Source of the DNA: Streptomyces geranii
Lineage (GTDB): Bacteria > Actinomycetota > Actinomycetes > Streptomycetales > Streptomycetaceae
Direction of reading: 5' to 3'
DNA length: 64,000 bases
NCBI RefSeq assembly: GCF_002954775.1
Contig: NZ_PJME01000008.1
Coordinates: 1 to 64,000, forward strand
This document shows positions 7,854 through 21,762 of the stretch, in pieces (the stretch's first letter is position 1; each line of letters starts with the position of its first letter). The position numbers and the translations under genes were made by a program. The notes below the pieces were generated by a model, which saw only the letters and a program-made list of their open reading frames with translations, was not told where the DNA came from and made no database searches.

Positions 7854-8906
7854 GTGATCAACGAAACGGCACTGCTGGAGTCCAAGACCCTGCGCGACAG
7901 CGTGCTGGAACGCACAGACGTACTCGACAAGGTCAAGACTCTGTCACTGCTGCCGGACGGCATGCATGTGACAACGGCGATGGTCGCGGCGTACTTCGAG
8001 GTCGCGGAGCGCGCCGTCAACCGGATGGCACAACGCCACCGGGACGAGCTCACGACGAACGGCCTGCGGATCCTGCGCGGCGAAGAACTCGCGCGGTTTA
8101 AGGGAGACACCCTGTCTCTCTATCCCGAGCGCCATCCACAACCCCGCTCCAGCCTGGCCCTTTGGTCCCGCCGAGCGATTCTCAACGCGGCCATGCTCCT
8201 CCGCGACAGCGAAGTGGCCCGCAAGGTCCGCACCTACCTCCTGGACATGGAGTACCTGGCACGCACCACCCAGCCTGTGGACAACCCTGTCCCCCAGGAC
8301 ACCCCCTCCCTCGACGACCGCATCGACCAACGCATCACCCACGTCCTCGGCAAGACCGTCGTCCCCATGTTCAACGCCCTGATCGAAACCTCGGGCGAAC
8401 ACCGCAGGGAACTCATCGCCCTGCGGACCGGAGTCCAGCGCATCGAGCGACGGCTCCACCAGCACCACACCCGCCTGCAGCGGCTCGAAGGAACAAGGGA
8501 CGACCGGCCCGCCATCGGAGTCATGGCCACCATGGACGCCATGAACGGCCGCACGTTCGAGCACCACATCGCCAAACTGCTCCGCCGCGACGGCTGCACC
8601 AACGTCGTCGTACAGGGCGGTCACGGAGACCGTGGCGTGGACATCATCGCGTTCACGGCCGACGGGCGAAGCCTCGTCGTCCAGTGCAAGAGGTTCGCGC
8701 CCTACCTCAGCATCACCAGCCCCGACGTCCAGAAGTTCATCGGCTCGGCGAAGGTCCTCCACAGTGCCGATGTCGCCCTCTACGTGGCGACCTGCCCCTT
8801 CACCCCGGAAGCCCTGAACATCGCCGCCGAGGCCGGAATCACCGTCGTACACCGCGGAGTGCTGGAGGAGTGGAGCGCCGGGGAACCCCTGAAGGTGCTG
8901 GAGTAG
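7854..8906 (+). CDS. Mrr-type restriction endonuclease domain protein with novel N-terminal module
   Basis: A protein of 350 residues. The C-terminal third (about 230-345) looks like an Mrr/PD-(D/E)XK nuclease: GRTFEHHIAKLLRRDG helix, GGHGDRGVDIIA with the catalytic Asp, and VVQCKRF supplying the Q-x-K pair, then the ITVVHRG strand. The N-terminal part (about 1-135) contains a segment resembling a sequence-specific DNA-binding module (VTTAMVAAYFEVAERAVNRM) and a conserved-looking helical stretch LWSRRAILNAAMLLRDSEVA. I do not recognise that family. A coiled linker (about 165-215) joins them. The GTG start follows GAGGAGC. It sits between pknB and the sortases, where I recall no such gene in S. 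coelicolor, so it is probably an accessory, defence-type insertion. Function beyond nuclease fold is unknown. Confidence 0.75.
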   Translation: MINETALLESKTLRDSVLERTDVLDKVKTLSLLPDGMHVTTAMVAAYFEVAERAVNRMAQRHRDELTTNGLRILRGEELARFKGDTLSLYPERHPQPRSSLALWSRRAILNAAMLLRDSEVARKVRTYLLDMEYLARTTQPVDNPVPQDTPSLDDRIDQRITHVLGKTVVPMFNALIETSGEHRRELIALRTGVQRIERRLHQHHTRLQRLEGTRDDRPAIGVMATMDAMNGRTFEHHIAKLLRRDGCTNVVVQGGHGDRGVDIIAFTADGRSLVVQCKRFAPYLSITSPDVQKFIGSAKVLHSADVALYVATCPFTPEALNIAAEAGITVVHRGVLEEWSAGEPLKVLE

Positions 8907-8927
8907 TCACGACTGGAGTAGTCACGA
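8898..8927 (+). repeat. 15-bp tandem duplication spanning the Mrr-gene stop codon
   Basis: CTGGAGTAGTCACGA occurs twice head to tail (8898-8912 and 8913-8927). The first copy carries the TAG stop of the Mrr-like gene. The pattern looks like a slippage or insertion-scar duplication. Confidence 0.8.
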
Positions 8928-8935
8928 GCTGACGA

Positions 8936-8980
8936 CGAAGGCCCGAAGCCGCAAGAGAAAGTTGCGGCTTCGGGCCTTCG
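8936..8980 (+). terminator. Strong terminator hairpin after the Mrr-like gene
   Basis: A perfect 19-bp stem starting CGAAGGCCCGAAGCCGCAA with a 7-base loop. It lies 30 bases after the Mrr-like stop and faces the convergent sortase gene, so it may terminate both directions. Confidence 0.88.
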
Positions 8981-8990
8981 CCATGCTAAC

Positions 8991-9017
8991 GACAGACCCC
9001 CTCGCAGGGGGTCTGTC
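8991..9017 (-). terminator. Terminator at the end of the first sortase gene
   Basis: GACAGACCCCC and GGGGGTCTGTC form a perfect 11-bp stem with a 5-base loop, overlapping the stop codon of the sortase gene at 9016. Confidence 0.75.
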
Positions 9018-9765
9018 ACCGCAACTCCTCCGGCACCGTCCGCTCCGAGTCCACCTTCTCCACCCGCACCAGCTCCCCCCACACGATGTACCGGTACTCC
9101 GACGTGAACACCGGCGTGCAGGTCGTCAGCGTGATGTACCGGCCCGCCTTCCGTTTCCCCGACTCCTTCGGGATCGGCGACAGCACCTGGACGTTGTACT
9201 TCGACGTCTCGGGGAGGGTCTCGTAGACCTTGTAGACGTACCACTCGTTCTTCGTCTCGAAGACGATCGGGTCGCCCACCTTCAGCTTGTCGATGTTGTG
9301 GAACTTGGCGCCGTGGCCGTCCCGATGGGCCGCCAGGGTGAAGTTGCCCGTCTTCGACTGCGGGAGCGCCGACTTGATGGGGTCCGTGTAGTAGCCGGCC
9401 ACGCCGTCGTTCAGGACGCTCGACGACGTGCCCTTCTTGACCAGGACCTCGCCGTTCTTCATGGCCGGGACATGCAGGAAGCCGATGCCGTCCTTGGTGT
9501 CCAGGGCGCCGGGACCCGTGTCCGGGTCGGCCCAGTGGTCGCGTACCTCGTCGCCCTGTTTGTTCGCCTCGCGGTCCGCGACGACGTTCGTCCACCAGAG
9601 CGAGTACGCCACGAACAGGCCGAGCACCAGGCCCGCCGTGATGAGGAGTTCGCCGAAAACACTCACCGCGGTGGCCAGTTTGCCGACCGCCCGCCCGGGG
9701 CGGGCCCGCGACGGGGAGACAGGCGCCTGCGCGGTCTGCTCGTCGTGGTCCGTCGTCGCTGCCAC
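9016..9765 (-). CDS. srtE2: Class E sortase (SrtE2-like)
   Basis: A membrane-anchored transpeptidase of 249 residues. One signal-anchor helix lies at about residues 32-55. The sortase barrel has the catalytic His in LAAHRDG, Cys in YITLTTCTP and Arg in SEYRYIVWG. The Tyr-containing strand YRYIVWGEL is typical of class E enzymes, which in Streptomyces cleave LAxTG signals and attach long chaplins to peptidoglycan. It is the last gene of a leftward run with a second sortase (57 bp upstream) and matches the srtE1-srtE2 tandem known in S. coelicolor. Which copy is E1 or E2 is inferred from order. Confidence 0.9.
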   Translation of the reverse strand: MAATTDHDEQTAQAPVSPSRARPGRAVGKLATAVSVFGELLITAGLVLGLFVAYSLWWTNVVADREANKQGDEVRDHWADPDTGPGALDTKDGIGFLHVPAMKNGEVLVKKGTSSSVLNDGVAGYYTDPIKSALPQSKTGNFTLAAHRDGHGAKFHNIDKLKVGDPIVFETKNEWYVYKVYETLPETSKYNVQVLSPIPKESGKRKAGRYITLTTCTPVFTSEYRYIVWGELVRVEKVDSERTVPEELR

Positions 9766-9822
9766 TCTGCATCTGCCCTAACTGCTACTGCACGAGCCCG
9801 CCGTCGTCACCGTCACCACCAA

Positions 9823-11274
9823 CTACAGCAACGCATCCGGCTTGCCCTTGCTGCGCGGCCGTTCCTCGACCATCTTGCCCCACACGATCATCCGGTACTT
9901 GCTCGTGAACTCCGGCGTACACGTCGTGAGGGTGATGTAGCGGCCCGGCTCGGTGAAACCCGAGCCCTTGGGGATCGGGTCCAGCACGCTCGTGTTGCTC
10001 GGTGACGTGACCGGCAGGATCGCCTCCATCTTGTAGACGTAGTACTTGTCCTGCGTCTCCACGACGATCGCGTCGCCCTTCTTCAGCCGGTTGATGTACC
10101 GGAACGGCTCACCGTGCGTGTTGCGGTGACCCGCGAGCCCGAAGTTGCCGGTCGCCGCCGACGGCATCGCCGTCGTGAGACCGCCCTCCGCGTAGTGCCC
10201 GACCATCCCCCGGTCCAGCACCTTCTTCTTGCTGGTGCCCTCCGCGATCGGCACCACCACGTCCAGCTTCGGGATGTCCAGGATGGCGAACCCCTGCCCC
10301 GGCTCGAACACCCCCGGCGCCCGCTTCCCGCTCGCCCAGTCGTCCTGGAGGCTCGTCGTCTCGTTCCCGGCCTGCGCGTGCGCCCGCACGTTCGTCCACC
10401 ACAGCTGGTAGGTCACGAACAGCAGCATCAGTACGCCCGTGGTGATGAACACCTCGCCGATCGCCCGGCTCGCCATCACGGCCATGCCCGGCTTCTGCGC
10501 CCGCGCCGCCTGCCGAGCCGCCACCCGCGAAAGGGCCGCTCCCTCCGCAGCCACCACGGCCACCTCGGCGCCCGGACCCTCCGATGCCTCCAGAGGGCCT
10601 CCATGGCGCCCGTGACGGGCTTTGGCGGCCTTCCGGCGTGCCGCCCGCCCACCGGCCACCGAAGGGCCCTCAGAGGCGCCTGTGGCCCCTGTGGCGGCCG
10701 AGCCCGCCGACACCGAGCCCTCGTCGGGTATTCGCGGCAGATCCGCCAGCCGCAGCGCCACCGTCTCCTCGTCGACCGGCGGCACCACCGGCGAGGCCGC
10801 GCGAGGGGGCACGGCAGGGGACACGGGAGCGGCTGCCTGCGGGGCGGTCCGGGGGGCGGCCTGGAGGTGGGCGGCCTGAGGAGGCACCCGCCTCGCCGCC
10901 CGAGGAGCCGGGGCAGGAGCCGCGTACGGCACCTGCTCCTCGTACACCCCCACCTGCCAGTCCTGCGCGTACCCCCGCGATTCGTACTCCGACTCCGGCC
11001 CAGGCCCCCGGTGCTCCGCCGCGCCCTGTTCGGCGCCCTGCTCGGCCGAGGCGTCGTACGGCCGCGCATGGCCGCGCCTGCGCCGCCCGGTACCCGGCGC
11101 CGGATCGCTCCGCGGCGCCGGCAACGGGTCGCTCAACGGATCCGCCGGCCGTTCCGCCGGCGCCTCGAACGCGCCCGGCACCCCGTACGGCTCCTGCTGC
11201 CCGTACGAGGGTCCCTGGTCGCCGGTTTCTCCGTACGCGGAGCCGGACTCGCGCTCGGGGCGCACGGCGGTCAC
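9823..11274 (-). CDS. srtE1: Class E sortase with long disordered N-terminal region (SrtE1-like)
   Basis: A protein of 483 residues. About the first 250 are low-complexity, rich in Pro, Ala, Gln, Tyr and Gly, and probably cytoplasmic. A membrane helix follows (about 268-290), then the sortase domain. Catalytic residues are His in LAGHRNTHG, Cys in YITLTTCTPEF and Arg in SKYRMIVWG. The GTG start overlaps the stop of the upstream amidotransferase (GTGA), which fixes the long start and suggests coupled translation. The extended N-terminus is roughly twice the usual sortase leader and is the odd feature of this copy. Expected role is cell-wall anchoring of LAxTG proteins such as chaplins, alongside the 9016 gene. 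Confidence 0.88.
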   Translation of the reverse strand: MTAVRPERESGSAYGETGDQGPSYGQQEPYGVPGAFEAPAERPADPLSDPLPAPRSDPAPGTGRRRRGHARPYDASAEQGAEQGAAEHRGPGPESEYESRGYAQDWQVGVYEEQVPYAAPAPAPRAARRVPPQAAHLQAAPRTAPQAAAPVSPAVPPRAASPVVPPVDEETVALRLADLPRIPDEGSVSAGSAATGATGASEGPSVAGGRAARRKAAKARHGRHGGPLEASEGPGAEVAVVAAEGAALSRVAARQAARAQKPGMAVMASRAIGEVFITTGVLMLLFVTYQLWWTNVRAHAQAGNETTSLQDDWASGKRAPGVFEPGQGFAILDIPKLDVVVPIAEGTSKKKVLDRGMVGHYAEGGLTTAMPSAATGNFGLAGHRNTHGEPFRYINRLKKGDAIVVETQDKYYVYKMEAILPVTSPSNTSVLDPIPKGSGFTEPGRYITLTTCTPEFTSKYRMIVWGKMVEERPRSKGKPDALL

Positions 11275-11909
11275 GCCGAGGCCCTGCCCACCACCGGGGC
11301 GAGCCCCGACGACCTCGCCACGGCACCGCGGTCACCGCACTCCACCAGCCAGTTGGCCAGCATCAGGTGACCGTGCTCCGTCAGCACCGACTCGGGGTGG
11401 AACTGCACCCCCTCGACCGGCAGTTCACGGTGCCTGAGACCCATGATGATCCCGTCGTGCGTACGGGCCGTGACCTCCAGCTCGGCCGGGACCGTCTCCG
11501 GCTCCGCCGCGAGCGAGTGGTAGCGCGTCGCAGTGAACGGCGTGGGCAGGCCCGCGAAGACGCCCTTGCCCTCGTGTTCCACGAGGGACGTCTTGCCGTG
11601 CAGCAGCTCGGGCGCCCGGTCCACCACACCGCCGTACGCCACCTGCATCGACTGCATCCCCAGGCAGACCCCGAACACCGGCACCCCGGTGGCCGCACAG
11701 TGCCGCACCATCTCGATGCAGACCCCGGCCTCCTCGGGCGTACCAGGGCCCGGCGACAGCAGCACACCGTCGAAGCCGTCCTGCGCGTGCGCCGTCGACA
11801 CCTCGTCGTTGCGCAGCACCTCGCACTCGGCGCCCAGCTGGTAGAGGTACTGGACCAGGTTGAAGACGAAGCTGTCGTAGTTGTCGACGACGAGAATCCG
11901 GGCGCTCAC
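11271..11909 (-). CDS. pabA: Class I glutamine amidotransferase, TrpG/PabA type
   Basis: A protein of 212 residues. It starts ARILVVDNYDSFVFNLVQYL and contains the nucleophile-elbow motif PVFGVCLGMQS with the catalytic Cys, and the HPESVLTEHG motif with the catalytic His-x-Glu. Such subunits supply ammonia to a chorismate-using partner (anthranilate or aminodeoxychorismate synthase). No large subunit lies nearby. GTG 11909 is chosen because it begins the conserved first strand and overlaps the stop of the small gene upstream; an open frame continues to 12116 but would overlap that gene. The downstream end overlaps srtE1. TrpG versus PabA cannot be decided from sequence alone. Confidence 0.9.
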   Translation of the reverse strand: MSARILVVDNYDSFVFNLVQYLYQLGAECEVLRNDEVSTAHAQDGFDGVLLSPGPGTPEEAGVCIEMVRHCAATGVPVFGVCLGMQSMQVAYGGVVDRAPELLHGKTSLVEHEGKGVFAGLPTPFTATRYHSLAAEPETVPAELEVTARTHDGIIMGLRHRELPVEGVQFHPESVLTEHGHLMLANWLVECGDRGAVARSSGLAPVVGRASA

Positions 11910-12067
11910 TGGTCGTTCACCGTCACATCGTTGAAGGGGAGCAGGGGTTCGGCCCACGGGAAGACGTACTGGAAGAGCACATAGACCACCGCCAGCGCCA
12001 GCACGAGGGAGAGCAACGCCTTCACCCACGCGTTCCCCGGCAGATGCCGCCAGATCCAGCCGTACAT
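11906..12067 (-). CDS. Small membrane protein, 53 aa
   Basis: ATG 12067 follows GGAAGGGAC at good spacing and opens a 53-residue protein, MYGWIWRHLPG followed by a hydrophobic helix (ALLSLVLALAVVYVLFQYVF) and a short acidic tail NDVTVNDQ. Its stop overlaps the GTG of the amidotransferase gene (GTGA), which strongly supports translation. An ATG at 12088 is an alternative. I recognise no family. Its place between two sortase genes and coupling to a soluble amidotransferase make a sortase-associated membrane factor possible, but this is only inferred from position. Confidence 0.75.
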   Translation of the reverse strand: MYGWIWRHLPGNAWVKALLSLVLALAVVYVLFQYVFPWAEPLLPFNDVTVNDQ

Positions 12068-12131
12068 GCCGTCCCTTCCGTCGCCCACGGCACCCGACTC
12101 GCGGCACCGGACTCACGCGTACCTCACCAGA

Positions 12132-12848
12132 TTAACGGCGCAGCGCCGCAGGTTTCCCGGCCTCCACAGCCTGTGTGGAATCCAGGTGTGCCCAGACGAT
12201 CAGCCGGTGGCTGTGCCCCCACTCCGGATCGCACGTGGTCAGCGTGAGGTAACGACCCGAACGCGTGTACCCGCTCTTACGTGGCACAGGATCGATCACC
12301 TCAATGTCCGTGGGCACGGTTTTGTAGGGCCCTTTGTCGATCCGATACGTGAACCAGGTCGTCCCGTCCGTAAGCACGACCGCGTCCCCGCGCCGCAGCT
12401 CCGGAAAGTCCTTGAACGGATCGCCGTACGTACGCCGGTGGCCGGCGACCGAGAAGTTGCCCTCCTGACCGAGCCGCGCGGTGGTGGCGTAGTGGCCGAG
12501 GCCCTTCTTCAGAGTGCTGGTCCTCGTACCTTCGAGCACGGGCTTGTTCCACGTGAAACCAAAGCGCGGGATGTACATGATCGCGAAGGGCTTGCCCGAG
12601 GAGTACGGCCCCGGGGGCTTCGGCCCGGTCGGGGCCTCGCCGCTCGCGGGGGTGGGCGTCGGCTCGGGCGACGCCTGCGTGACCGCGCCCTTCGACCACT
12701 CGTCCCGCAGCCGATGGATCTGGTCGTCCATCTCGCCGTCGGCCTTCACCCCGGTCCAGAAGAGCACGTACACGACGAAGAGCACGATCACCGTGCCCAC
12801 CGTGACGCACAGTTCACTGACCGTCCTGATGATCACGCGCCCCGACAC
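12132..12848 (-). CDS. Third class E sortase-family protein
   Basis: A protein of 238 residues. A membrane helix (about 10-32) precedes a Pro-rich spacer and a sortase barrel with His in VAGHRRTYG, Cys in YLTLTTCDPEW and Arg in HSHRLIVWA. It differs from the other two in the CDPEWGHSHR substrate-groove region, so substrate choice may differ. It lies 64 bp upstream of the 53-aa gene, in the same leftward run as the srtE pair and pabA-like gene. GTG 12848 is taken as start; GTG 12836 is an alternative. A one-mismatch parS sequence is embedded at 12546. Confidence 0.85.
   Translation of the reverse strand: MSGRVIIRTVSELCVTVGTVIVLFVVYVLFWTGVKADGEMDDQIHRLRDEWSKGAVTQASPEPTPTPASGEAPTGPKPPGPYSSGKPFAIMYIPRFGFTWNKPVLEGTRTSTLKKGLGHYATTARLGQEGNFSVAGHRRTYGDPFKDFPELRRGDAVVLTDGTTWFTYRIDKGPYKTVPTDIEVIDPVPRKSGYTRSGRYLTLTTCDPEWGHSHRLIVWAHLDSTQAVEAGKPAALRR
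12546..12559. promoter_or_regulatory. Degenerate parS (one mismatch) inside a sortase gene
   Basis: GTTCCACGTGAAAC differs from the parS consensus GTTTCACGTGAAAC at one base. It lies in the coding sequence of the third sortase. ParB may bind it weakly. Confidence 0.5.
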
Positions 12849-19815: not shown

Positions 19816-21762
19816 ATGGGTGAGGTCTTCGCCGGCCGGTACGAACTGGCCGACCCGATCGGGCGTGGGGGAGTCGGCGCCGTCTGGCGTGCCTGGGACC
19901 ACCGTCGCCGCCGGTATGTGGCCGCCAAGGTGCTCCAGCAGAGCGACGCCCACTCGCTGCTGCGCTTCGTGCGCGAACAGGCGCTGCGGATCGACCACCC
20001 GCATGTGCTCGCCCCGGCCAGCTGGGCCGCCGACGACGACAAGGTCCTGTTCACGATGGACCTGGTCGCGGGCGGCTCGCTCGTCCATCTGATCGCGGAC
20101 TACGGCCCGCTGCCGCCCGCGTTCGTCTGCACCCTCCTCGACCAGCTCCTGTCGGGCCTCGCCGCCGTGCACGCGGAGGGCGTCGTCCACCGTGACATCA
20201 AGCCCGCCAACGTGCTCCTCGAAGCGACCGGCACGGGCCGCCCGCGGCTGCGGCTGTCCGACTTCGGCATCTCGATGCGGCTGGGCGAGCCCCGGCTGAC
20301 GGAGACCGACTACGTGGTGGGCACGCCGGGTTACTTCGCGCCCGAGCAAATGCTGGGCGCGGACCCGGACTTCCCCTCCGACCTGTTCGCCGTCGGCCTG
20401 GTCGCGCTCTATCTCCTGGAGGGCGCCAAGCCGGACTCCAAGGCCCTCATCGAGTACTTCGCGGAGCACGGCACGCCCAGTGCCCCGCAGGGCATACCCG
20501 AGCCGCTCTGGCAGGTCGTGGCCACGCTGCTGCAACCGGACCCGCAGGCACGCTTCCGCACCGCCACGGGCGCCCGCAAGGCCCTCGGCCAGGCCGCCGA
20601 GCTACTGCCCGAGCCGGGCCCCGACGACGAGTTGATCGAGATCTTCGACCAACTCGGCCCGCTCCCAAGGGGTTTCGCCCCGGCGGGCCCCCTCAAGCCG
20701 TCCCCGGGCGTGACCGCGAACGGCGCGCGTACGGGAGCGGCGGCGGGCGGCAACACAGCGGGCGGGCAGGCGACGGGCACCGGGCACGGCGGCGAGTACG
20801 GCGACGCGGACTCGGACGGCCCGCACACCGGCCCGGGGGCGGCCCGCCCGTACGACCCGTACCGCGAACCGCACCCGGACGGCACACCCACCGGCCCGGC
20901 GACGGGCGGCACGCACACGGGCCCGGGGCTCAGACCACCCCGGGGCCCGATCCCGGCCCACGTCCCCCTGCAGACACCGGCGCCGGGCACACTCCCCTCG
21001 CTGCCCGGACCGGGTACCGGCGGCATACCGGCCATGCCGGCCAGGCCTGCCGAGGACCCCACGCCCACCGGCTCCGGTCCCGGCCACCCCTGGCCGCCCG
21101 CCGCCTCCGGCGCCACCCCGGCGTGGCCCGGCAGCGACCCCGTACCACCGTCCCGGCCACCGGCCCCGAACGGCACCGAGGCTCCCGGCGGACCCCACCA
21201 GGCCCACCCCGCCCAGCTCACGCACCCCGCGCACCTTGGCCACCCCGGTCACCTCGCGCAGCGCAACGGCGTCCCTCCCCACCCGGACGTCACCCCACCG
21301 CGCCCCGCTCACCCACCTTCCACAGCGCCCTCGGGCTCCTCGCCCACGCCGCCGGCCCCCATCCCCCCGCAGCCCTCCGCGCGGCCACCCCAGCCGTCCA
21401 CCATGTCGGACACGGGCAGCTTCCACCTGCCCCCGCCGCAGCCGACGGCCTCCGCCACTCCCCCCTCGGCGGCGGCCCACGTACACCCGCACTTCGACAC
21501 CCCGCACGCGCACGGGGCCACCACCCGGACCCAGACCGCGACGGTTCCCCCCGCTCCGACGCCGCGTCAGGACACGTACGCCTCCACCCCTTCGTACGTC
21601 GACCCGCTCCCGCAAGTTCCCGACACGCCGCAGGCCGTTCCGCAGCGCCGTGGCCGACGTCGTCAGCGTCGTCCCGGGCCGCCCGCGAAGGTGGCGATAC
21701 CGGTGCTTTTCCTGGCGCTGACCTGCTACGCGGTCGGTTTCTGGGCCCTGTTCCGCATCTGA
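19816..21762 (+). CDS. Serine/threonine protein kinase with Pro-rich linker and C-terminal membrane helix
   Basis: A protein of 648 residues. The kinase domain (about 8-260) has GRGGVGAVW, AAKVL lysine, catalytic HRDIKPANVLL, DFGISM and the APEQ motif. About residues 290-615 are a low-complexity Pro/Gly/Thr/His linker with repeated HPAH- and GP-rich runs. It ends with VAIPVLFLALTCYAVGFWALF, a membrane helix only a few residues from the C-terminus, so there is essentially no extracellular sensor. That differs from PknB. Substrate is unknown. It is convergent with the secreted-protein gene at 21860. The start has only weak ribosome-site support. Confidence 0.87.
   Translation: MGEVFAGRYELADPIGRGGVGAVWRAWDHRRRRYVAAKVLQQSDAHSLLRFVREQALRIDHPHVLAPASWAADDDKVLFTMDLVAGGSLVHLIADYGPLPPAFVCTLLDQLLSGLAAVHAEGVVHRDIKPANVLLEATGTGRPRLRLSDFGISMRLGEPRLTETDYVVGTPGYFAPEQMLGADPDFPSDLFAVGLVALYLLEGAKPDSKALIEYFAEHGTPSAPQGIPEPLWQVVATLLQPDPQARFRTATGARKALGQAAELLPEPGPDDELIEIFDQLGPLPRGFAPAGPLKPSPGVTANGARTGAAAGGNTAGGQATGTGHGGEYGDADSDGPHTGPGAARPYDPYREPHPDGTPTGPATGGTHTGPGLRPPRGPIPAHVPLQTPAPGTLPSLPGPGTGGIPAMPARPAEDPTPTGSGPGHPWPPAASGATPAWPGSDPVPPSRPPAPNGTEAPGGPHQAHPAQLTHPAHLGHPGHLAQRNGVPPHPDVTPPRPAHPPSTAPSGSSPTPPAPIPPQPSARPPQPSTMSDTGSFHLPPPQPTASATPPSAAAHVHPHFDTPHAHGATTRTQTATVPPAPTPRQDTYASTPSYVDPLPQVPDTPQAVPQRRGRRRQRRPGPPAKVAIPVLFLALTCYAVGFWALFRI

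What the first reader, a model, noticed from the sequence alone, without database searches (positions are those of the whole stretch)
7854..8906. Accessory Mrr-like nuclease fused to an unrecognised N-terminal module inside a core operon boundary
The C-terminal domain has GDRGVD and VVQCKR motifs of Mrr-type PD-(D/E)XK nucleases, but the N-terminal 135 residues match no family I know. They contain a possible DNA-binding segment plus a helical LWSRRAILNAAMLLRD block. The gene sits between pknB and the sortases, is bracketed by terminators on both sides, and carries a 15-bp duplication at its stop, all consistent with insertion. A nuclease with its own recognition or regulatory module and no partner methylase nearby could be a stand-alone defence factor, for example a modification-dependent one.
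Basis: partly seen in the sequence, partly recalled or inferred. Interest (0 to 1): 0.72.

Follow-up and report, generated by a model that had tools for sequence, protein, structure and literature searches.

The report
Streptomyces nuclease with swappable phage-type cassette
A Streptomyces gene joins a DNA-cutting enzyme to a DNA-binding module of the kind that viruses of bacteria use as a genetic switch, and the part that should read the DNA is exchanged like a cartridge among species and in related viral proteins, which suggests a small defence enzyme that can be re-aimed without a partner methylase.

Summary
The ORF at 7854-8906 is real: 350 aa with a clear Mrr_cat nuclease domain. Its "unrecognised" N-terminus is the N-terminal DNA-binding domain of temperate-phage antirepressors, KilA-N/ORF6N-like by distant sequence and by fold. 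The gene is accessory: at the pknB-srtE1 site in at least 53 of 295 Streptomyces genomes, 13 of the 53 decayed or nuclease-less. It lies between the pknB terminator and srtE1. The 15-bp duplication is not an insertion footprint.

The main result was not in the finding. Within the N-domain, aa ~50-104 (recognition-helix position to wing) is exchanged as a cassette. In 105 of 195 gene pairs with a near-identical coil and nuclease the cassette is unrelated; cassette types sit almost randomly on the nuclease tree (36 changes; shuffled mean 39.3). Antirepressor relatives in viral contigs vary the same segment, and one viral cassette matches a host cassette at 73% aa where flanks match at 46%.

Best reading: a methylase-free nuclease, re-aimed by cassette exchange at phage-type DNA sites, working like the phage nuclease Odn. 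Target and activity are untested, and nuclease-less copies persist.

The parts
7854..8906 (+). CDS of the chimeric protein, 350 aa, GTG start
   Evidence: start and length shared by locus-I relatives
7854..8267 (+). N-domain (aa 1-138), phage antirepressor N-domain, KilA-N/ORF6N-like
   Evidence: tblastn to 67 phage records; ORF6N in 28 of 88 relatives; AF2 pLDDT 88; fold match to viral KilA-N proteins
8001..8165 (+). exchanged cassette (aa ~50-104): recognition-helix position H52-61, H63-68, E72-75, H76-85, loop, E100-104
8313..8498 (+). long helix, probable coiled coil / dimerisation (aa 154-215)
   Evidence: AF2 (pLDDT only about 50 in aa 154-180, 73-85 in aa 181-210)
8517..8903 (+). Mrr-type PD-(D/E)XK nuclease domain (aa 222-350)
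   Evidence: PF04471 E 6e-21; AF2 pLDDT mostly above 90
8640..8642 (+). D263, catalytic Asp of the GVD motif (assignment recalled from the Mrr family)
   Evidence: 41 of 42 aligned rows
8682..8690 (+). Q277-C-K279, the QxK motif
   Evidence: Q 40 of 42, K 39 of 42 rows; exceptions L113, L137, L139
7722..7765 (.). hairpin after pknB, counterpart of the single hairpin seen in empty sites
8936..8980 (.). hairpin after the gene, present after the gene in the 6 sequences looked at
8991..9017 (.). third hairpin, at the 3' end of srtE1
8898..8927 (.). tandem 15-bp duplication over the stop codon, not an insertion footprint
   Evidence: single copy in L151

Best explanation
A stand-alone chimeric nuclease that most likely protects the cell against phages or other invading DNA. 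SHOWN by sequence: an antirepressor-type N-domain, a helical linker and an Mrr nuclease with kept catalytic residues form one gene; the segment corresponding to recognition helix and wing is exchanged as a cassette between species while the rest of the protein stays the same; related viral proteins vary the same segment. INFERRED: the protein binds a specific DNA sequence through the cassette, as a dimer through the long helix, and the Mrr domain cuts the bound DNA. Without a methylase the host survives because the site is missing from its chromosome, the site being a phage regulatory sequence of the kind that antirepressors bind. Cassette exchange re-aims the nuclease as phages change. In logic it is the host-side counterpart of the phage nuclease Odn, whose DNA-binding domain is taken from its target.
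For: Mrr_cat above cut-off, catalytic D263/Q277/K279 in 41/40/39 of 42 rows, dN/dS 0.15-0.21 in all five segments of 43 concordant pairs: the nuclease is under purifying selection where present. N-domain homologous to antirepressors placed just after repressor/cro genes in temperate phages, with KilAC (ANT) C-terminus in 2 of 3 phage proteins scanned. AF2: cassette spans H52-61 (recognition-helix position) to E100-104. Exchange: WIN versus G115 and G288, flanks mostly 75-95% nt identity, cassette core 40-47%; 105 of 195 pairs with coil+Mrr at or above 85% have cassette at or below 65% and 31 of 78 pairs with cassette at or above 85% have Mrr at or below 75%; synonymous difference pS 0.67 in the cassette versus 0.30-0.40 in other segments of the discordant pairs, so replacement and not fast amino-acid change; 36 changes of cassette type on the coil+Mrr tree, shuffled 39.3 +- 1.7. 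Viral relatives: 31 of 50 pairs with C-terminus at or above 75% have cassette under 70%. Viral L299 against S. tuirus L205: cassette 73% aa, 74.5% nt over 161 nt, flanks 46%. Patchy and decaying: at least 53 of 295 genomes, 13 of the 53 broken or nuclease-less. PADLOC candidate model PDC-M59A on the N-domain. Precedent: Odn (PMC8263062, passages).
Against: No activity, target or phage phenotype is known. Six nuclease-less locus-I copies compared end cleanly after the helix and keep dN/dS 0.17-0.48, and a second gene family (group II) has N-domain and helix only, so the N-domain may work without cutting. The gene is not in a defence island. The nuclease also tracks the host poorly (rho 0.12-0.32), and some srtE1 windows reach only 0.12, so recombination is not confined to the cassette. 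The window's own N-domain misses Pfam's ORF6N cut-off (13 against 27.8 bits); PDB fold matches are weak (best E 0.13). In the phage pair L277/L300 the upstream region stays about 73-100% identical while the cassette changes, so the cassette did not change together with the upstream control region in that pair. In one search many pairs share members and are not independent. PDC-M59A is a candidate, not a tested system.
Confidence: 0.5

Rival explanations
1. A type IV-like, modification-dependent restriction enzyme: the N-domain senses modified bases, as winged-helix and SRA domains do when fused to Mrr-type or other nucleases.
For: Same layout as EcoKMrr (winged helix + Mrr_cat; PMC12707154 passages) and wH-fusion nucleases (PMC11037411, two passages); no methylase among the neighbours scanned; PADLOC mREase_IV matches the C-terminus at E 6e-8.
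Against: Nothing here shows modification sensing; the N-domain is homologous to antirepressors, not to a known modified-base reader; a modified-base reader would not need a recognition segment that is swapped among species.
Confidence: 0.2
2. A domesticated phage regulator: it binds operators of resident or incoming phages and blocks or induces them; the Mrr domain is secondary.
For: Nuclease-less copies with clean ends and constrained N-domain; group II has no nuclease; N-domain comes from phage control regions.
Against: Catalytic residues and dN/dS of the nuclease are kept in most copies; locus-I copies at least begin as N+helix+Mrr (39 of 52 besides the window in frame).
Confidence: 0.17
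3. A selfish homing-type nuclease that cuts the empty pknB-srtE1 site and copies itself in.
For: Stand-alone nuclease gene at fixed intergenic sites, patchy distribution, several sites of the same layout between convergent genes, partial srtE1 copies and second N-domain pieces beside some genes.
Against: One and the same site holds genes with different cassettes, which a site-reading homing nuclease should not tolerate; loss by decay is common.
Confidence: 0.08

Closest known systems
Odn (gp88), origin-directed nuclease of Vibrio phage ICP1 (PMC8263062; abstract and passages seen)
   Same: Single-gene chimera of a DNA-binding domain related to one of the opponent's own DNA-binding proteins and a nuclease domain; sequence-directed attack without a methylase.
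   Different: Odn is phage-borne, RepA_N + T5orf172 (GIY-YIG) and aimed at a satellite's replication origin; here the gene is bacterial, antirepressor N-domain + Mrr, and the recognition cassette itself is exchanged on a large scale.
EcoKMrr and Mrr-type modification-dependent enzymes (PMC12707154 passages)
   Same: N-terminal winged-helix-type DNA-binding part + Mrr_cat nuclease with QxK motif.
   Different: The N-domain is of the antirepressor/KilA-N type; no evidence for modified-base reading; swapped cassette.
Phage antirepressors with KilAC C-terminus (e.g. Gordonia phage Finkle, Alicyclobacillus phage MMB025)
   Same: Homologous N-domain (44-51% identity) with a variable segment at the same place.
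   Different: Their C-terminus is ANT/KilAC or other; 0 of 80 viral loci carried a detectable Mrr.
Type I restriction HsdS target recognition domains (PMC12707154 passages)
   Same: Exchange of recognition segments changes specificity while the enzyme stays constant.
   Different: HsdS works with a methylase and a translocating HsdR; here one chain, and no methylase among the neighbours scanned.
PADLOC candidate PDC-M59A
   Same: The model covers the same N-domain (aa 23-132, E 2e-14).
   Different: Match covers only positions 24-132 of 338; partner genes and function not known to me; no paper with 'PDC-M59' in the held library.

Membership tests
Mrr_cat PD-(D/E)XK nuclease | Match above the curated cut-off | tested here: met
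   75.1 bits against 21
Mrr_cat PD-(D/E)XK nuclease | Catalytic D and QxK kept | tested here: met
   present in the window; 41, 40 and 39 of 42 rows
Mrr_cat PD-(D/E)XK nuclease | DNA cleavage | not testable with these tools
   needs protein
KilA-N/ORF6N DNA-binding superfamily | Pfam cut-off reached by this protein | tested here: not met
   ORF6N 13.0 against 27.8 bits
KilA-N/ORF6N DNA-binding superfamily | Relatives match the family | tested here: met
   ORF6N in 28 of 88 relatives at E up to 0.01, best 2e-6; the window's own domain has no match at that limit
KilA-N/ORF6N DNA-binding superfamily | Same fold | tested here: met
   viral KilA-N proteins E 8e-5 and 8e-4, TM 0.54 and 0.53 by query length; predicted models on both sides; PDB matches weak
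Phage antirepressor (N-domain + KilAC) | Homologous N-domain | tested here: met
   67 phage records
Phage antirepressor (N-domain + KilAC) | KilAC/ANT C-terminus | tested here: not met
   Mrr instead
Type IV modification-dependent restriction enzyme | Needs modified DNA | not testable with these tools
   no sequence evidence for it
Classical restriction-modification | Cognate methylase nearby | tested here: inconclusive
   none among 10 neighbouring proteins scanned within about 11 kb; rest of the genome not scanned for methylases
Homing endonuclease | Recognises its own empty site | not tested
   cassettes differ at one constant site, which speaks against it
Odn-like chimeric anti-element nuclease | Recognition part derived from, or shared with, the opponent | tested here: met
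   N-domain shared with phages, cassette shared with viral L299; direction of transfer not shown
Odn-like chimeric anti-element nuclease | RepA_N and T5orf172 domains | tested here: not met
   no such match in the Pfam scan at E up to 1

The most novel reading that the evidence does not exclude
A host-encoded, methylase-free restriction factor whose specificity is changed by exchange of a roughly 55-residue recognition cassette drawn from a pool shared with phage antirepressors: the bacterium re-aims a nuclease with the phages' own operator-reading parts.
Probability: 0.4. Interest if true: 0.85.

Novelty: new variant of a known kind. Interest (0 to 1): 0.66.

Why it matters
If true, it adds a one-gene defence with switchable sequence specificity, intermediate between fixed restriction enzymes and adaptive systems, and shows a common bacterial genus reusing a phage regulatory module against phages. 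The natural collection of cassettes (7 types at 70% and 12 at 80% aa identity among 78 genes) on an almost constant scaffold makes it directly testable whether cassette determines DNA site and phage range, and would offer ready-made parts for programmable DNA binding. It also shows that the variable segment of antirepressors deserves attention: in viral relatives it changes while the rest stays.

Tried and rejected
15-bp duplication as insertion footprint: rejected, one copy in the nearest relative L151 and no copy at the 5' end. Unknown N-domain: rejected. Presence in nearly all Streptomyces: rejected. Fast positive selection instead of exchange as the cause of cassette divergence: rejected, synonymous sites are as far apart as in replacement (pS 0.67 against 0.30-0.40) and same-type pairs have dN/dS 0.17. 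Cassette reading its own promoter: not favoured; upstream DNA is 87-93% identical between the window and G115/G288 although the cassettes differ, and L152 shares the cassette with different upstream DNA. Cassette changing with the phage control region: one good phage pair (L277/L300) gives no support upstream, while 0.5 kb downstream diverges; left open. Fold search in the PDB gave only weak MarR/winged-helix matches; sequence search of solved structures gave no relative. NCBIfam gave nothing useful. AU test: the cassette rejects the coil+Mrr tree (difference in logL 3071), but the coil segment used as control is rejected too (82, p 0.001), with too few replicates for a reliable AU value, so I rely on the label counts. 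Literature: no description of an antirepressor-Mrr chimera appeared in the listings, nor 'PDC-M59'; listings show titles and abstract starts only, and only CC-licensed PubMed Central papers are held. Rows left out: of 79 loci with N-domain whose surroundings were read (out of 113 genomes with a match) the remaining matches were not fetched; the 78-gene set holds only in-frame N+Mrr genes of 330-360 aa next to srtE1 from the 80 best of 360 loci plus those of 17 chosen genome-search loci that were not duplicates; host comparison used 60 of the 78.

Full report
OBSERVATION. The ORF at 7854-8906 is present as described. Pfam finds Mrr_cat at aa 228-340 with E 6e-21. Hairpins stand on both sides. 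The 15-bp tandem repeat at the stop exists, but the nearest relative L151 (Streptomyces sp. GQFP) has one copy and no copy lies at the 5' end, so it says nothing about insertion. Of 10 neighbouring proteins scanned, none is a methylase.

THE N-DOMAIN IS OF PHAGE TYPE. tblastn of aa 1-149 against annotated phages gives 67 records with under 60% identity, among them Gordonia, Mycobacterium, Paenibacillus and Alicyclobacillus phages, many annotated 'antirepressor'. In the three temperate phages whose control region I looked at (Hayley, Finkle, Pagassa) the gene follows the repressor/cro-type genes; in Alicyclobacillus phage MMB025 it is annotated Ant but lies elsewhere. Two of three phage proteins scanned carry the ANT/KilAC C-terminus. 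28 of 88 relatives match ORF6N at E up to 0.01, best 2e-6; the window's own protein does not reach the cut-off. The AF2 model of aa 1-149 (pLDDT 88.3, pTM 0.81) matches predicted viral KilA-N proteins (E 8e-5 and 8e-4; top match 1.5e-11 is unnamed), and only weakly winged-helix proteins of the PDB (best E 0.13). The full-length model has confident N- and nuclease domains joined by a long helix of low confidence in its first half, and an uncertain overall arrangement (pTM 0.42).

THE GENE IS ACCESSORY AND OLD AT THIS SITE. In 295 Streptomyces genomes 113 hold an N-domain match and 291 the neighbouring sortase. Reading the surroundings of 79 N-domain loci gives 52 genomes besides the window with the gene next to pknB and/or srtE1, hence at least 53 of 295; in 39 of the 52 the Mrr match is in frame with the N-domain, in 13 it is missing, out of frame or partial. 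Of 80 named loci kept from a scan of GTDB genomes (360 relatives found), 72 lie at this site. Of 15 loci without N-domain match, 12 had pknB within the held stretch; 11 of these show one hairpin (judged by eye) between the two convergent genes and nothing else recognised, and one (L090) a remnant of the nuclease; a further locus, L108, holds a nuclease piece. Outside the genus the N-domain is rare: 17 of 345 class-level genomes, 3 of 126 genera. Other chromosomal sites exist, in the loci read always between convergent genes by a rough gene caller: group II (N-domain + helix, near serS), group III (N+helix+Mrr near a GNAT gene and dnaB), and L180.

CASSETTE EXCHANGE. Compared with its closest hosts G115 and G288 the window has pknB, helix, nuclease and sortase largely at 75-98% nt identity, but codons ~50-90 of the gene at 40-47%; the more distant G236 shares that stretch at 85-90%. 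In 78 distinct intact genes, 105 of 195 pairs with coil+Mrr at or above 85% have a cassette at or below 65%; 31 of 78 pairs with cassette at or above 85% have Mrr at or below 75%; rank correlation of pairwise identities is 0.03 for cassette-Mrr and 0.71 for coil-Mrr. In 81 discordant pairs identity falls sharply near codon 50 and recovers near codon 103. Synonymous difference in the cassette is 0.67 against 0.30-0.40 in the other segments, so the segment was replaced and did not merely evolve fast. Seven cassette types at 70% aa identity need 36 changes on the coil+Mrr tree; shuffled labels need 39.3 +- 1.7, range 33-43, while the nuclease subtype A/B needs 1. Correlation with host distance (srtE1 and pknB kinase, 60 genes) is 0.04-0.13 for the cassette and 0.47-0.52 for its flanks; it is also low for the nuclease (0.12-0.32), so larger pieces move too. 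In the AF2 model the cassette runs from the recognition-helix position (H52-61) through the wing (E72-75 to E100-104).

PHAGE RELATIVES DO THE SAME. Of 80 viral loci kept (126 found), none has a detectable Mrr. Among 50 viral pairs with C-terminus at or above 75% aa identity, 31 have a cassette under 70% and 12 under 50%, e.g. L277/L300: C-terminus 100%, aa 1-49 98%, cassette 64%, following part 98% (pairs share members). The cassette of L205 (S. tuirus) is 73% identical in protein and 74.5% in DNA to that of viral L299 (E 6e-22), while their flanks are 46% identical. So hosts and phages appear to draw on a common pool; the direction is not known.

MECHANISM. Shown: chimeric architecture, kept catalytic residues (41, 40 and 39 of 42 rows), purifying selection in each segment (dN/dS 0.15-0.21), exchange of the recognition segment. 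Inferred: sequence-specific binding, dimerisation, cutting, protection from phages, and self-protection by absence of the site. The nearest precedent in logic is Odn of phage ICP1, a nuclease with a DNA-binding domain highly similar to its target's own origin-binding protein (PMC8263062, abstract and passages). In layout the nearest is EcoKMrr, winged helix + Mrr_cat (PMC12707154, passages).

AGAINST. Six nuclease-less copies end cleanly after the helix with dN/dS 0.17-0.48, including the related G230/G200 pair at 0.24; group II is nuclease-less throughout the loci read. The N-domain may therefore act alone, with the nuclease as an addition that is often lost. No target site is known and no assay exists. 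The one good phage pair does not show the cassette changing with the upstream control region.

VERDICT. Observation partly confirmed; interpretation partly supported; a new variant of a known kind (chimeric DNA-binding nuclease), made interesting by a recognition cassette that is exchanged among species and resembles those of phage antirepressors.

Noticed in passing
L042:5623-6327, L041, L039 and other group II loci: A second conserved gene, about 220-260 aa, N-domain + helix without nuclease, at a fixed place near serS in the loci read; where coordinates allowed, about 100-140 kb from srtE1.
   Followed up: partly
L140, L141, L144, L174, L199, L180: N-domain + helix + Mrr genes at other sites (next to a GNAT gene and dnaB; beside a Ser/Thr kinase homologous to window 19816-21762), again between convergent genes.
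   Followed up: partly
L255, L260, L268, L269, L286: Viral proteins with the same N-domain followed by what looks by eye like an HNH nuclease (CAYC...H motifs), another natural N-domain-nuclease pairing.
   Followed up: no
L062, L063 (G230, G200); L036, L037; L178, L226: Locus-I copies that end cleanly after the helix with no nuclease and with constrained sequence; function without cutting is unexplained.
   Followed up: partly
L127:2758-2823, L143:2823-3065, L060:1100-1414, L031:7528-7611: Pieces of srtE1 upstream of the gene and second pieces of N-domain beside it: signs of tandem duplication and recombination at the site.
   Followed up: no
L277 versus L300: In this viral pair about 0.5 kb directly downstream of the antirepressor diverges together with the cassette while the upstream 1.3 kb stays similar.
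   Followed up: partly
window 9016-12848: Three sortase genes with a trpG-like GATase gene between them next to the pknB operon (Pfam).
   Followed up: no
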